The notes under the pieces: model-generated
The model's input: the letters and a program-made list of their open reading frames with translations, nothing else
What the model was told of the DNA's origin: nothing
The model's database searches: none
From: a virus
IMG/VR virus record: IMGVR_UViG_3300028196_000021
Span: 1 to 51,557 of that record
Length of the DNA: 51,557 nt
Reading direction: 5' to 3' (one strand)
Shown: positions 3,268 to 15,822 of the stretch, piece after piece
Position numbering within the stretch: the first letter of the stretch is position 1
Layout: each line of letters opens with the position of its first letter
Program-made: the position numbers and the translations under genes

Positions 3268-3824
3268 TAATTTCCGCCTGATGTTCCAGGAAGATAGCTT
3301 CCTAATTTTAAATCACTTAACTTTTGCGAGGAAACTGCAGGATTATAAACGCTGTTATTACCTGATCCAAATTGACTATTAACTATATTTGGATCTTTTA
3401 CTTCTCCTTCATATGCAGGCTTGTCACTTGCATTTACGCTTCCTACTCCAGGAGATGTAGGGTTAGGCATGTAAGGTGAAGGTAATGTTTCTCCAAGCGC
3501 TGTGTCGTCTGTTATATCAATATTACTGATGTCGGGTGCACCATTAGCAATGTAATCTCTACTAATACCATTCGGAAAATAACCGTTAATGGTATTGGGG
3601 ATTGAAAAAGATCCGTCTTCATTTAAGTTAAGTGGTTCACCATCTAAAACTAATTGCTGAAATGTTTCTTTTCGTTCTTCAGCAGTTAATTCTCCTGAAT
3701 GGATAGGAGAACTTCCAAAAGCAGATTTTAAATTGCCTGTATAACTTTGCCCTTTACTTGCATAAGGTTGCGTTAAAGCAATATTTTTTCCGTCGATGTT
3801 ACCGTAATAATTATTTCCTGACAT
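3267..3824 (-). CDS. Hypothetical protein of the head cassette
   Basis: A 185-residue protein rich in Gly, Ser, Asn and Pro, without a recognisable domain. The N-terminus (MSGNNYYGNIDGKNIALTQP) and C-terminus (LGSYLPGTSGGN) are low complexity; the middle has a short helical segment (ELTAEERKETFQQLVLDGEP, about residues 45-64) that could be an interaction site. The start at 3824 lies inside the end of the preceding gene and has a clear AAGGAG ribosome site 8 nt upstream. Its stop overlaps the next start by TAATG. Composition and location between protease and scaffold suggest a minor head or core component, but this is context only. Confidence 0.7.
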   Translation of the reverse strand: MSGNNYYGNIDGKNIALTQPYASKGQSYTGNLKSAFGSSPIHSGELTAEERKETFQQLVLDGEPLNLNEDGSFSIPNTINGYFPNGISRDYIANGAPDISNIDITDDTALGETLPSPYMPNPTSPGVGSVNASDKPAYEGEVKDPNIVNSQFGSGNNSVYNPAVSSQKLSDLKLGSYLPGTSGGN

Positions 3825-4059
3825 GTTTAAGCTCCTTAATTAACTTATTCTTTAATCTTGCTTTTTTTTCATAAAGATTTTTAAAATCGTTTCCAGCTCT
3901 ATTTTGAGCTTTGTTAATCAACAGTAACTTTTTATATGTTTCAATAATAATTTTATTTCTATTTGCTTTTTGCTTTCTTTCTTTAATAATTTTTAATTTT
4001 TCTTCTCTAATCAATCTTTTGATAAGTTGTGGTGTAAGTTTAACTATGTTCTTTTTCAT
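3811..4059 (-). CDS. Small basic protein with capsid-targeting-like N-terminus
   Basis: An 82-residue, Lys/Arg-rich, almost wholly alpha-helical protein. The N-terminus (LTPQLIKRLIREEKLKII) has the pattern L-x(3)-I/L-(K/R)-x-L-I-x-E-E seen in other proteins of this window (4107-4559 and 15235-15822). It contains an I-R-E triplet that fits the (L/I)-x-E specificity of gp21-type prohead proteases. In T4, internal head proteins carry short cleavable N-terminal targeting peptides; by analogy this may be a small core protein, like T4 gp67/gp68, or a packaged DNA-binding protein. The start at 4059 has GAGAGG upstream and a possible promoter at 4090-4117. The last 14 bp overlap the next gene. Confidence 0.7.
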   Translation of the reverse strand: MKKNIVKLTPQLIKRLIREEKLKIIKERKQKANRNKIIIETYKKLLLINKAQNRAGNDFKNLYEKKARLKNKLIKELKHVRK

Positions 4060-4089: not shown

Positions 4090-4117
4090 ATTATATAGCT
4101 AAATGATTATTGATCAA
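4090..4117 (-). promoter_or_regulatory. Candidate sigma70-type promoter upstream of the small basic head gene
   Basis: On the minus strand, TTGATC (4117-4112), a 16-bp spacer and a perfect TATAAT (4095-4090) precede the start at 4059. Immediately downstream, TATAAATT (4085-4078) matches 7 of 8 bases of the T4 late promoter TATAAATA. The region is very AT-rich, so chance matches are likely. Either element would give a short leader before the GAGAGG ribosome site. Confidence 0.35.
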
Positions 4118-4559
4118 AAAATGCTAATTTTGCCCACTTACCTGCAGCTTCCCCACCAAACAAATCTTCTGGTAAAGACTTGCTAACTTCTGCAGCTGCA
4201 GCATCAGCTGGTCTTGACATTCCTGCCATTCTGTTTTTTGAATCTGCTGCTACTTGTTCTTTTAATGTTGTTTGTGCTGTATCTGCCAGTAACTCGTTTA
4301 AAACAGGATCATTTGTTAGATTTGTTTTTTTTGAGTTTTGGTTTGTTTTACTACTGCCCATCTGCATGCTATCTAAATAGCTTTTTCTTCTTTTGCTAGA
4401 CAATGTATGTTTTTTAGGTGCACTTTTAAAAGATTCTTGATTAGATTCATTAACATATTCGTTTGTTGCAACGTTAGAATTACCAATTCCTTCTGCTAAT
4501 ATTTCTACCAAACATTCTTTAACAATGCTTTTAAGTTCGCTTCTTAAAAGTTTCGGCAT
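4107..4559 (-). CDS. Prohead-associated protein with capsid-targeting-like N-terminus and scaffold-like C-terminus
   Basis: 150 residues from the ATG at 4559, chosen because AGGAG lies just upstream; an in-frame ATG 33 nt earlier (4592) overlaps the protease gene and lacks such a site. The N-terminus (MPKLLRSELKSIVKECLVEI) matches the helical L-x-S-E-L-K-x-I-x-K-E pattern of other presumed head-targeted proteins here, with LVE and LAE triplets that could be cut by the prohead protease. The C-terminus contains DSKNRMAG and ends WAKLAFFDQ, resembling the scaffold tail DSKNRTVG...WARLAGLK. The middle is Ser/Lys/Asn-rich and probably disordered. It lies directly after the protease gene, the position of T4 core-protein genes. 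It is probably a prohead core protein or packaged protein; the exact role is unknown. Confidence 0.75.
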   Translation of the reverse strand: MPKLLRSELKSIVKECLVEILAEGIGNSNVATNEYVNESNQESFKSAPKKHTLSSKRRKSYLDSMQMGSSKTNQNSKKTNLTNDPVLNELLADTAQTTLKEQVAADSKNRMAGMSRPADAAAAEVSKSLPEDLFGGEAAGKWAKLAFFDQ

Positions 4560-4582: not shown

Positions 4583-5179
4583 TTATTCCCAATTAAGAAT
4601 ATCGTTAAATATTCTATTAACTCTATCTGTTTTATTAAACACTTTTTTAAGTTCTTCAGAAGATATTTCTTTTCCCTCTTTCATTACAAAAGCACCGGGG
4701 GTAGAAGGCTCTGAAACCATGTCAAAACATATTAATTGAAAATCATCTTGCACAATTTGTGTTGAACCTTGCTTTTGTGTCGACCCTACGCCTCGAGAAG
4801 ATATACCAAGTGTAACACCGCTTTCAATTAAAGATTGAATAATCTTTCCTGATGGTGTATCTAATATTTCTAATGAACCATATACTACGTCGCCTTGCAT
4901 GTAAGCTTCTTTAACAACATGTGAAACGTTTTTAAGCTCAACAACAGAAGAATCCGGATGATCACACTCACCCATTGCGCGATTCTCTTGAATTAACTTT
5001 TGATAATTCATGATTTCTCTTTCTAAAATAGTGCGAGGATATATTCTTCCATTTTGATTTAAAGTATTTGATTTTTGTATAGGACCTTTAAGGATTAACT
5101 TTCCGCCATGGCGTTCCCGAGATTCTTTAATCATTTCTTTTGTAATGTTAAAAGCACACCACTCTGTCAATAATTTCAT
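4583..5179 (-). CDS. 21: Prohead core protease, T4 gp21-like (peptidase family S77)
   Basis: 198 residues, close to T4 gp21 (212). It would mature the prohead by cutting scaffold, capsid and core proteins after (L/I)-x-E. Visible family features are NQNGRIYPR at 41-49, the GECDHPD segment with the likely catalytic His74, NVSHVV at 84-89, and GISSRGVG at 125-132 with the likely nucleophile Ser127. The order His then Ser and the NGRIYP signature are those of the gp21/S77 family. Its AAGGAG ribosome site is formed by the last codons of the upstream gene (stop at 5182), so translation is coupled. It sits between portal and scaffold, as in T4. Confidence 0.92.
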   Translation of the reverse strand: MKLLTEWCAFNITKEMIKESRERHGGKLILKGPIQKSNTLNQNGRIYPRTILEREIMNYQKLIQENRAMGECDHPDSSVVELKNVSHVVKEAYMQGDVVYGSLEILDTPSGKIIQSLIESGVTLGISSRGVGSTQKQGSTQIVQDDFQLICFDMVSEPSTPGAFVMKEGKEISSEELKKVFNKTDRVNRIFNDILNWE

Positions 5180-13510: not shown

Positions 13511-13912
13511 TTAACTAATTACTATCATTTTATTTGCCGGAAAGAAAAGATAACCAGCTGATGACATTACTCTTACATTGTTTTGATACGACTTTAAGCT
13601 TTTTTTCCAACCTGTGCTTGGTCCACGTTGAATTACATCTTTAATTCCCCATGTTACTAAACCAAACAGTTCTTTCCCGGTAGGTGAAGCGCTCGACTTA
13701 ATCTTAACTAAATCACCCGGGTGAACGTTCCAAGTTACTTTTACCTTATGATCATTAAGCGACTCTTTTCTAATTTGTCTTTTTTGGGAATGTGATAATT
13801 TTGTTTGATAACTATTTTGACTTTGTTGTTTATTTTCTTTTGCTTCTTGATTTTTAATTTTTCGAGCAGCATTTTTAATATCTTTCAATAAGCTTTTTTT
13901 AATTTTAGCCAT
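13511..13912 (-). CDS. Small basic protein with SH3-like C-terminal part
   Basis: 133 residues. Residues 1-50 are a basic, Gln/Lys-rich helical tail. Residues about 58-133 look like a small beta-barrel (VTWNVHPGDLVKIKSS, FGLVTWGIKDV, VRVMSSAGYLFFPANKMIVI); the PGDLVKIK and final strand pattern resemble SH3-like folds found in other phage hypothetical proteins. A nucleic-acid or protein adaptor role is possible. It is the first gene after a candidate extended -10 promoter (13937-13945) and lies 8 bp ahead of the Mre11-Rad50 fusion, so the two may be co-expressed. No recognised family. Confidence 0.7.
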   Translation of the reverse strand: MAKIKKSLLKDIKNAARKIKNQEAKENKQQSQNSYQTKLSHSQKRQIRKESLNDHKVKVTWNVHPGDLVKIKSSASPTGKELFGLVTWGIKDVIQRGPSTGWKKSLKSYQNNVRVMSSAGYLFFPANKMIVIS

Positions 13913-13965: not shown

Positions 13966-15234
13966 TTAAAGTATGCTTTTAATATCTTTAAAATGATTAA
14001 TGTAATTGACAATGTGCTTAATATAATCATCGCCACAAAAATTTAAAACATTATTAAAATCAAAATCTGTATCAGCTAAAAGCATTATCCTACCAGATCG
14101 TCCATTCCCGTCATCAAAAGGGTGAATCCACTCATATAAAATATGTTTAACATAACAATTTTCTTGTATATGAATTTTTGATAAATTAGGAATAATGTAT
14201 TCAGGATCAGCGTATTTATTGCCTGAGTTTTTTGAATATCCGCTATTGATTCTTAAAGTACCGGGTTTTCCGGAATCTAAACAACTATGCTTAAAAGACT
14301 TGTGAATTTGAATCATTTTGTACGGATTATCAATTGGTAATAATTTATAAGCTGTTACTAACCCGTTTAAATGAGAAAATATATTTTTATCGTTAGTACA
14401 TTTATCAATTGGGTAACCTGACAGGAAATTTTCACAAGCATTTAAACACTCTTGATAATTTAAGCTAATATTTTCAATTTGGTTTGACCTCAAAATGAAT
14501 TCAGCAATATTATGTTTTAGCTGTTTAGGATCTTTATTTTTCTTTATTAAGTAATTTTTACAATCTTTAATGTCTTTTTTTGTCAAATTAAAATCGATTA
14601 AATCATTTAACAAACCTTCTTGTTTGCATAAACCAGCTAACGTTTCACCAATAAACCTACCATACAATACATCGCTAGGAAAATGTACACCATTTTCAAT
14701 TCTAGAATGTCCAATTAACCTGGCTAATTTTTTTAAGTCATGGCGATGTGACTCGTATAAACTTGATAGTGTTTCTGCTATAAAGTATGCAGAAGCTGTG
14801 TGGCCACTAGGAAATGAAGAATTAAACATATCTTCTATTTCATCATATTCTTCCCCTAAGAACTTTTTAGGTCTAGGCCTGTCGTGTTTATGTTTAAGAT
14901 GAGCCACAATTGTGCTTACATCTTTTCCGTAGTCCTTAATTGTTTTCCAGTCAGGATATAAATTATTAGTTTTGCAATAATCTTTAAATATTTTCTTAAC
15001 AGACTTATGAGACTTAGTAAGAAAATGCTTAGGAAGTGATGGGTTGTGATAGTGATTTAAAAGTTCTTCAACGTCTTTTTTGTGTAAATCACTAGTAGGT
15101 TTAGGACATGCTAATTCCGGAAGCAGGTTGTAATTTTTAATATATTTACATGACCTGGACATCTTTTTTTTGTCTTTATTTTTTATTCCGTGATTTTTTG
15201 TTTCTTCAAAAAGATCTTGGAGTAAATAAGGCAT
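13966..15234 (-). CDS. PAP2/class A acid phosphatase-Fic domain fusion protein
   Basis: 422 residues. The N-terminal half carries the full three-part PAP2 phosphatase signature: K114-x6-R121-P122, PSGH at 142-145 (His145), and S177-R178-x5-H184-x3-D188 (nucleophile His184). The second half is a Fic domain: HPFDDGNGRSGR at 371-382 is a perfect HPFx(D/E)GNGRxxR catalytic motif for AMP transfer, preceded by a flap-like PGTLR at 324-328. Residues 250-255 read S-N-Q-I-E-N, matching the autoinhibitory (S/T)xxxE(G/N) helix of class II Fic proteins. I see no signal peptide or membrane helices, so it is probably cytosolic, unlike most PAP2 enzymes. Its ATG directly follows the TAG of the upstream zinc/Cys-Gly gene. 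Likely targets are host proteins (Fic) and a small phosphate ester or nucleotide (PAP2); both are inferred. Confidence 0.9.
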   Translation of the reverse strand: MPYLLQDLFEETKNHGIKNKDKKKMSRSCKYIKNYNLLPELACPKPTSDLHKKDVEELLNHYHNPSLPKHFLTKSHKSVKKIFKDYCKTNNLYPDWKTIKDYGKDVSTIVAHLKHKHDRPRPKKFLGEEYDEIEDMFNSSFPSGHTASAYFIAETLSSLYESHRHDLKKLARLIGHSRIENGVHFPSDVLYGRFIGETLAGLCKQEGLLNDLIDFNLTKKDIKDCKNYLIKKNKDPKQLKHNIAEFILRSNQIENISLNYQECLNACENFLSGYPIDKCTNDKNIFSHLNGLVTAYKLLPIDNPYKMIQIHKSFKHSCLDSGKPGTLRINSGYSKNSGNKYADPEYIIPNLSKIHIQENCYVKHILYEWIHPFDDGNGRSGRIMLLADTDFDFNNVLNFCGDDYIKHIVNYINHFKDIKSIL

Positions 15235-15822
15235 CTACACATCACCTTCAAATTTATCATGATCTAATGCGTGGTAAACTTCACCAATGTCATCAGCTAT
15301 TTGAGCCAGCTTAGTCCGCATCCAATCTTCAAGGTTGTGACCGTCAGGTATCATGTGGTAAAGTTTTTCTGCGTATTTATTCACTTTGTATAGATGACTT
15401 TTAGCCATATAAGAACCTTTGTATGTTTTGTGATTACCAACTTTATGTGCATCTACATCATAACCCGCATGTGTCAAGACGTCTACCATACCCATTGTAT
15501 CTGTTGAATAATCTGGTGCATCGTCGACACCGCCACAAGGACCACATGATCCGCACCCACCACAATCACCTTCATTTAGTGAATTGTACTCTTTGCGTGT
15601 TTCTTCTTCTGCTAATGAATAACCGCACTGTTCACAAACTTTATCACCTTCATACATTTTTGAACCACATTCTGAGCACGACTTGTACATTATTTGCCTT
15701 CCAGGATCATCATGTCTAGACAATACCCCCGGGTTTATTTTTGCGACAATTGCGTCTTCTTCCATTTTTTTTATTTCTTTAATGATTAAATTTCTTAACT
15801 GTTTTCTATTTAGCTTTCCCAT
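15235..15822 (-). CDS. Zinc-ribbon and Cys/Gly-rich protein with capsid-targeting-like N-terminus
   Basis: 195 residues. The N-terminus (LNRKQLRNLIIKEIKKMEED) matches the helical targeting-like pattern of the small head proteins at 3811-4059 and 4107-4559 and includes an I-K-E triplet that fits the prohead protease. Next is a zinc ribbon, C49-x2-C52 and C63-x2-C66 (CSECG, CEQCG), then a Cys/Gly stretch (CGGCGSCGPCGG, about residues 87-98). The C-terminal part (AKSHLYKVNKYAEKL, LEDWMRTKLAQIADDIGEV) is a helical domain I have seen in other large aquatic phage proteins. Best guess is a metal-binding protein packaged in the head. It is translationally coupled to the PAP2-Fic gene that follows. 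Confidence 0.78.
   Translation of the reverse strand: MGKLNRKQLRNLIIKEIKKMEEDAIVAKINPGVLSRHDDPGRQIMYKSCSECGSKMYEGDKVCEQCGYSLAEEETRKEYNSLNEGDCGGCGSCGPCGGVDDAPDYSTDTMGMVDVLTHAGYDVDAHKVGNHKTYKGSYMAKSHLYKVNKYAEKLYHMIPDGHNLEDWMRTKLAQIADDIGEVYHALDHDKFEGDV

What the first reader, a model, noticed from the sequence alone, without database searches (positions are those of the whole stretch)
13966..15234. PAP2 phosphatase fused to a Fic AMPylase domain in a phage protein
One 422-residue frame carries two complete, opposite-type enzymes: a PAP2/class A phosphatase with all three motifs (K114-x6-RP, PSGH 142-145, SR-x5-H184-x3-D188) and a Fic domain with a perfect HPFDDGNGRSGR motif (371-382) plus a class II inhibitory S250-x3-E254-N255 helix. 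I know of no described phage protein of this make-up. One half could add AMP to a host target while the other removes phosphate from a nucleotide, a lipid or the modified target itself. No signal peptide or membrane helix is seen. It lies between replication and recombination genes and is coupled to a zinc/Cys-Gly protein with a head-targeting-like N-terminus, so delivery or early action on the host is conceivable.
Basis: partly seen in the sequence, partly recalled or inferred. Interest (0 to 1): 0.87.

Follow-up and report, generated by a model that had tools for sequence, protein, structure and literature searches.

The report
Phage phosphatase–AMPylase fusion, probably injected
A family of uncultured phages carries, at one fixed place in the genome, a protein that joins an acid-phosphatase domain to a protein-AMPylating Fic domain and starts with a T4-like 'pack me into the head' signal, so it is probably injected into the host with the phage DNA as a two-enzyme weapon.

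Summary
The 422-aa frame (minus strand, 13966–15234) holds a complete soluble PAP2/class-A-type phosphatase domain and a Fic domain with all catalytic residues; Pfam, AlphaFold2 and Foldseek confirm both folds. It is not a chimaera. I found 20 more viral contigs (18 further distinct sequences, 23–72% identical in pairwise comparison) with the same fusion in the same operon slot (RuvC–primase–Zn protein–PAP2-Fic–small protein–[MoxR–VWA]–SbcCD). I found no such fusion in sampled cellular genomes, phage records or plasmids.

(1) The fusion itself begins with a conserved disordered peptide, [LI]xxLF-x-E-T, in register with the T4 capsid-targeting sequence (MKTYQEFIAE|A) and the T4 Alt N-terminus (MELITELFDED). 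The phage encodes a T4 gp21-type head protease. Virion packaging and injection, like T4 Alt, is therefore the best reading. (2) In one clade (5 of 19) the Fic active site and its inhibitory Glu are both lost while the fold and all PAP2 residues remain. The phosphatase is thus the constant activity and AMPylation is separable. Stand-alone Fic, Fic–Nudix and stand-alone PAP2 phage proteins, most with similar N-termini, also occur.

Substrates are unknown and nothing is experimentally shown. New variant of known kinds; interest about 0.7.

The parts
13966..15234 (-). PAP2-Fic gene, 422 aa, one open frame
   Evidence: 18 further distinct orthologous sequences
15202..15234 (-). residues 1-11 MPYLLQDLFEE: capsid-targeting-like N-terminal peptide; predicted gp21-type cleavage after E10/E11
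   Evidence: [LI]xxLF in 19/19 and x-E next in 14/19 orthologs; 0.50 mean pairwise identity against 0.27 for residues 13-36; pLDDT <50; T4 IPII/IPIII and Alt N-termini read from AF158101
14626..14910 (-). PAP2 phosphatase domain core (residues 109-203)
   Evidence: Pfam PF01569 3.6e-16; Foldseek to soluble class A acid phosphatases, prob 1.00
14869..14895 (-). PAP2 motif 1, K114-x6-R121P122
   Evidence: K, R, P invariant in 19/19
14800..14811 (-). PAP2 motif 2, P142-SGH145
   Evidence: invariant in 19/19
14671..14706 (-). PAP2 motif 3, S177-R178-x5-H184-x3-D188
   Evidence: R, H, D invariant in 19/19
13969..14586 (-). Fic half (about residues 217-422)
   Evidence: Pfam PF02661; Foldseek to FICD, CbFic2, EfFIC, prob 1.00
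14470..14487 (-). class II inhibitory motif S250-NQI-E254-N255
   Evidence: Ile-Glu invariant in 14/14 Fic-intact members, absent in the 5 Fic-degenerate ones
14089..14124 (-). Fic catalytic motif H371-PFDDGNGRSG-R382
   Evidence: HPFxDGNGRxGR in 14/19 distinct sequences; degenerate in 5/19
15235..15822 (-). upstream Zn-ribbon/Cys-rich protein (195 aa), abutting the PAP2-Fic start (TAG directly before ATG), with its own LRxxIxxE N-terminus
13511..13912 (-). downstream small conserved protein (133 aa), unknown function, same slot in most relatives
4583..5179 (-). T4 gp21-type head maturation protease (198 aa), the enzyme expected to cleave the N-terminal peptide
   Evidence: phrog_207 E=7.8e-53; 45-49% identical to annotated prohead proteases

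Best explanation
A virion-packaged, co-injected two-enzyme effector of a clade of T4-protease-bearing large myoviruses. Step 1 (inferred): the N-terminal 10-11 residues direct the protein into the prohead core and are cut off by the phage's gp21-type protease. Step 2 (inferred): the mature protein enters the host with the DNA, as T4 Alt does. Step 3 (residues and folds shown, activity inferred): the C-terminal Fic domain transfers AMP from ATP to a hydroxyl of a host protein and is held in check, or made reversible, by Glu254. The N-terminal domain, a soluble acid-phosphatase-type PAP2 fold, removes phosphate from a soluble phosphomonoester or pyrophosphate-containing compound in the cytoplasm. 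Step 4 (inferred): the two act mainly on separate targets. The fusion is a shared delivery vehicle, with the phosphatase the constant activity and AMPylation the optional one.
For: Domains: Pfam and PDB sequence matches, AF2 model pLDDT 85.3, Foldseek to PhoN/PhoC/PaAP for one half and to FICD/CbFic2/EfFIC for the other, prob 1.00. Catalytic residues: PAP2 invariant in 19/19; HPFxDGNGRxGR and the inhibitory Ile-Glu in 14/14 Fic-intact members. Packaging: conserved disordered N-terminal peptide in register with T4 IPII/IPIII MKTYQEFIAE|A and T4 Alt MELITELFDED; T4 residues 4, 7, 8 and 10 are the ones that matter for targeting and processing, and gp21 cuts after L/I-x-E (PMC9026906); gp21-type protease in the same genome; similar N-termini on 35 of 197 proteins of the 236-kb relative against 6-7 expected, and on most stand-alone phage Fic and PAP2 relatives. 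Separability: Fic-dead clade with intact fold and PAP2; separate halves in other phages. Constraint: dN/dS about 0.07-0.10 in both halves where it could be estimated; conserved synteny in 18 loci plus the window.
Against: No virion proteomics, no activity, no substrate. The residue before x-E is F rather than the L/I of T4's L/I-x-E rule, so cleavage is less certain than targeting. The gene sits next to primase and SbcCD, not in a block of known head genes. In four of the five Fic-dead members the cleavage Glu is Asp. In AF2 with 14 sequences pTM was only 0.60, so the domain arrangement is not reliable. dS is near saturation in most pairs.
Confidence: 0.52

Rival explanations
1. It is not packaged: it is made early in the infected cell and acts there on host proteins and metabolites; the N-terminal peptide has another role (solubility, dimerisation, translation).
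For: Gene lies in an operon with RuvC, primase and SbcCD, not with known head genes; no virion data exist.
Against: N-terminal 12 residues are as conserved as the PAP2 core although predicted disordered, and match the T4 CTS register; the same kind of N-terminus recurs on unrelated proteins of the same phage.
Confidence: 0.22
2. The two domains form one coupled machine on one target or one reaction: for example PAP2 removes PPi made by Fic or acts on the phosphorylated or AMPylated target, so the activities depend on each other.
For: Fusion is kept in 19 distinct sequences spanning 23-72% pairwise identity; another phage Fic is fused to a Nudix pyrophosphohydrolase (L118), so Fic plus phosphohydrolase recurs.
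Against: PAP2 stays intact where Fic is catalytically dead, and Fic occurs alone (L114, L117, L119) as does PAP2 (L120, L121).
Confidence: 0.13
3. Fic is a cis-acting lock: it AMPylates the PAP2 half (or itself) to keep the phosphatase silent during virion assembly; the Fic-dead clade keeps the fold as a non-catalytic cover.
For: Fic fold retained and under constraint after loss of catalysis; PAP2 constant.
Against: No direct evidence; stand-alone phage Fic proteins have nothing to lock in cis.
Confidence: 0.08
4. Ordinary reading: a chance assembly or annotation chimaera of a phage PAP2 gene and a phage Fic gene.
For: The halves do exist separately in other phages.
Against: Same fusion, same slot, in 20 further contigs from different IMG/VR datasets.
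Confidence: 0.01

Closest known systems
Fic AMPylators with an inhibitory Glu (class II: CdFic, BtFIC, SoFic, FICD)
   Same: Motif HPFxDGNGRxGR, S/TxxxE-type inhibitory helix N-terminal to the core, fold.
   Different: Fused behind a phosphatase; in a phage; G/N after the inhibitory Glu not conserved in the family; one clade catalytically dead.
Class A acid phosphatases / PAP2 superfamily (PhoN, PhoC, P. aeruginosa acid phosphatase; LpxE by sequence)
   Same: All three motifs, soluble all-helical fold.
   Different: No signal peptide, no membrane helices, presumed cytoplasmic action, fused to Fic.
T4 Alt ADP-ribosyltransferase and internal proteins IPI-IPIII
   Same: CTS-like N-terminus (MELITELFDED / MKTYQEFIAEA against MRSIQELFDET) and a gp21-type protease in the genome; proposed delivery and host-protein modification are alike.
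   Different: Different chemistry (Fic/PAP2, no ADP-ribosyltransferase domain found); presence in virion untested.
Phage polyvalent proteins (PMC5512222)
   Same: Several effector domains in one polypeptide thought to be packaged and injected.
   Different: That survey does not mention Fic or PAP2; its characteristic core domains were not searched for one by one.
Stand-alone phage Fic, Fic-Nudix, LRV-Fic and PAP2 proteins
   Same: 31-37% identical Fic half (E down to about 1e-35) or PAP2 half; many with CTS-like N-termini.
   Different: Only one of the two halves, other genomic places.

Membership tests
Fic (class II, AMPylating) | HxFx(D/E)GNGRxxR catalytic motif | tested here: met
   H371-R382 in window; 14/19 distinct family members; 5 members degenerate
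Fic (class II, AMPylating) | (S/T)xxxE(G/N) inhibitory motif N-terminal to the core | tested here: met
   S250NQIEN255; in the family only the Ile-Glu is invariant
Fic (class II, AMPylating) | Fic fold | tested here: met
   Foldseek to FICD, CbFic2, EfFIC prob 1.00
Fic (class II, AMPylating) | AMP transfer to a protein | not testable with these tools
   needs assay
PAP2 superfamily | Kx6RP, PSGH, SRx5Hx3D | tested here: met
   catalytic K, R, P, PSGH, R, H, D invariant in 19/19
PAP2 superfamily | PAP2 fold | tested here: met
   Foldseek to PhoN/PhoC/PaAP prob 1.00, TMt about 0.66
Class A non-specific acid phosphatase | secreted/periplasmic with signal peptide | tested here: not met
   no hydrophobic N-terminal segment; so fold-type match only, not a member
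T4-type packaged internal protein | capsid-targeting N-terminus with cleavage motif | tested here: inconclusive
   register and hydrophobic pattern match T4 IPII/IPIII/Alt, but P3 is F, not L/I
T4-type packaged internal protein | gp21-type protease in same genome | tested here: met
T4-type packaged internal protein | found in virion | not testable with these tools
   no virion proteome
Polyvalent proteins | two or more effector domains in one phage polypeptide | tested here: met
Polyvalent proteins | specific core domains (e.g. ArdC-N) named in PMC5512222 | tested here: not met
   Pfam finds only PAP2 and Fic

The most novel reading that the evidence does not exclude
A virion-delivered AMPylator: a phage injects, pre-made with its DNA, an enzyme that combines protein AMPylation (possibly reversible through Glu254) with a cytoplasmic acid-type phosphatase, a two-enzyme takeover or counter-defence weapon maintained as a core gene of a large-phage clade, with a natural AMPylation-dead lineage as built-in control.
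Probability: 0.45. Interest if true: 0.85.

Novelty: new variant of a known kind. Interest (0 to 1): 0.7.

Why it matters
Phages are known to inject ADP-ribosyltransferases (T4 Alt), but I found no described injected AMPylator and no described PAP2-Fic fusion. If confirmed it would add AMPylation to the chemistry used at the first moment of infection. The family also offers a natural experiment: orthologs with an intact Fic, a dead Fic, Fic alone and PAP2 alone, most with candidate head-targeting peptides that can be tested directly by virion proteomics or by fusing the 11-residue peptide to a reporter.

Tried and rejected
Chimaera or missed stop: rejected (18 further distinct sequences, same slot). 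Membrane PAP2: rejected (no hydrophobic segment). Fusion in bacteria, as a prophage or cellular gene: not found. The genome-collection scan gave PAP2-half matches only (best 80 kept); full-length profile searches of 395 and 398 genomes of two phyla gave only PAP2-half matches; plasmids gave PAP2 half only. Isolated phages: no match to the window protein and only single-half matches to relatives. BFVD structures: no fitting match across both halves. Literature: no paper holds Fic domain + PAP2 + phage; the polyvalent-protein and jumbo-phage surveys lack Fic and PAP2 domains. One Fic-tree row (L115) was mistranslated and redone. Pfam on ten other proteins of the 236-kb relative with (mostly) such N-termini found almost no known domains, so it did not show what else may be injected.

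Full report
OBSERVATION. All the motif residues sit at the numbers given. Pfam gives PAP2 (3.6e-16, residues 109–203) and Fic (2.1e-7, residues 340–385), both above the gathering cut-offs. An AlphaFold2 model built on 14 orthologs has mean pLDDT 85.3 and pTM 0.60. Foldseek matches its N-terminal half to soluble acid phosphatases (P. aeruginosa acid phosphatase 7f17/7f18, PhoN, PhoC; prob 1.00, TMt about 0.66) and its C-terminal half to FICD, C. burnetii Fic2 and E. faecalis FIC. There is no hydrophobic segment.

FAMILY. Scans of IMG/VR found 20 further contigs (18 distinct sequences besides the window) that encode the full two-domain protein, at 72% down to 23% pairwise identity. In all 18 relatives' loci examined it sits in the same order: 397-aa and 782-aa proteins, RuvC, primase, (Zn protein), PAP2-Fic, (small protein), [MoxR-AAA, VWA], SbcCD. 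A scan by the neighbouring primase found PAP2-Fic in every contig with a primase at least 46% identical to the window's (6 of 6) and in none of the 74 more distant ones. It is thus a core gene of one phage clade, with contigs up to 236 kb. I found no such fusion in cellular genomes: the collection scan kept only PAP2-half matches, and full-length profile searches of 793 sampled genomes gave only PAP2-half matches. Plasmids gave only PAP2-half matches. Isolated phages gave no match to the window protein and only single-half matches to relatives.

THE TWO HALVES EVOLVE DIFFERENTLY. All PAP2 catalytic residues (Lys, Arg, Pro, PSGH, Arg, His, Asp) are invariant in 19 of 19 sequences. The Fic motif HPFxDGNGRxGR and the inhibitory Ile-Glu are intact in 14 of 14 Fic-intact members. 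In five members (L003–L006, L113) both are lost together (APFxxGNxKITN or KPFSNGNKRFSK, no Ile-Glu). These five form one clade in trees of either half (98/95 and 100/99). Their Fic half is still predicted to fold as a Fic domain (L004 model pLDDT 87.6; FICD and CbFic2 among the Foldseek matches). This model used an alignment that included Fic-intact members. The Fic half still shows dN/dS about 0.07–0.10 there (dS is high in most pairs, so the values are rough). Because the Fic-only phage relatives are also intact, loss in this clade is the simplest reading. The joint loss of catalytic residues and Glu supports that the Glu works on that active site.

PARTS IN OTHER PHAGES. The Fic half alone occurs as short proteins (L114, L117, L119), as a Fic–Nudix fusion (L118, Nudix 1.7e-16) and behind leucine-rich-variant repeats (L115). 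PAP2 alone occurs in L120, L121, L123 and L129, and inside larger proteins in L122 and L124. The activities are therefore modular.

PACKAGING SIGNAL. Residues 1–12 of the family are as conserved as the PAP2 core (mean pairwise identity 0.50 and 0.53), while residues 13–36 have 0.27. Yet this peptide is predicted disordered. [LI]xxLF is present in 19/19 and x-E next in 14/19. T4 record AF158101 gives IPII MKTYQEFIAEA, IPIII MKTYQEFIAEA and Alt MELITELFDED; ours are MRSIQELFDET, MKSILCLFKET and, in the window, MPYLLQDLFEET (one residue longer). In T4 the first 10 residues of IPIII suffice for head targeting, with residues 4 and 7 important for targeting, residues 8 and 10 for processing, and Asp at 10 blocking processing but not targeting; gp21 cuts after L/I-x-E (PMC9026906). 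Alt loses six residues after ITE-6 and is ejected into the host (PMC5694885; PMC9026906). Hydrophobic residues at 4, 7 and 8 and Glu at 10 are in register in our family. The deviation is F for L/I before x-E. Four Fic-dead members have Asp at 10. The phage encodes a gp21-type protease (phrog_207, 7.8e-53; 45–49% identical to annotated prohead proteases of Flavobacterium phage immuto and Microcystis phage Mel-JY01). In the 236-kb relative 35 of 197 proteins have a [LIVMFYW]xx[LFIM][IFLVM]xE N-terminus against 6–7 expected, and the upstream Zn protein has one of the same type.

MECHANISM. Best supported: a packaged, co-injected effector in which Fic AMPylates a host protein under control of Glu254, which in other Fic enzymes both restrains AMPylation and permits deAMPylation (PMC6408439). 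PAP2 hydrolyses a soluble phosphate compound. The halves probably act on separate targets and share the delivery signal. Shown: domains, residues, folds, synteny, conservation, the motif and the protease gene. Inferred: packaging, cleavage, injection, both activities, targets. Rivals and their tests are listed separately.

KNOWN OR NEW. Each half belongs to a known superfamily and the proposed delivery is that of T4 Alt. The combination, its place as a core gene, its probable packaging and its Fic-dead lineage are not in the papers searched. New variant of known kinds.

Noticed in passing
L118:4935-5924: Phage protein with a CTS-like N-terminus (MKLILESWRKFVKEE), a Fic domain with canonical SNKIEG inhibitory motif, and a C-terminal Nudix hydrolase domain: a second Fic + phosphohydrolase fusion.
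   Followed up: partly
L115:3075-6155: 1026-aa phage protein with leucine-rich-variant/HEAT-like repeats followed by a Fic domain.
   Followed up: partly
L219-L230 (236-kb contig IMGVR_UViG_3300028384_001500): Dozens of otherwise unrelated proteins begin MK[IL][TS]RxxLRxLIxE-like peptides (35 of 197 by a loose motif against 6-7 expected), most of those tested without a Pfam domain: possibly a large set of packaged or injected proteins.
   Followed up: partly
window 3811-4059 and 4107-4559: Small proteins next to the head protease carry the same kind of N-terminus (LIKRLIREE, ELKSIVKECLVEILAE); candidate prohead core proteins.
   Followed up: no
L012, L013, L001 etc. versus window, L009, L106: A MoxR-type AAA ATPase + VWA protein pair lies between the PAP2-Fic operon and SbcCD in most relatives but is absent in the window and its two nearest relatives.
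   Followed up: no
L120:4758-5396, L121:4902-5579, L123:4737-5399, L129:4884-5570: Stand-alone soluble PAP2 proteins in other phages, two of them with clear CTS-like N-termini (MKLIMENWNNFLSE, MKHYIKRILLESL).
   Followed up: partly
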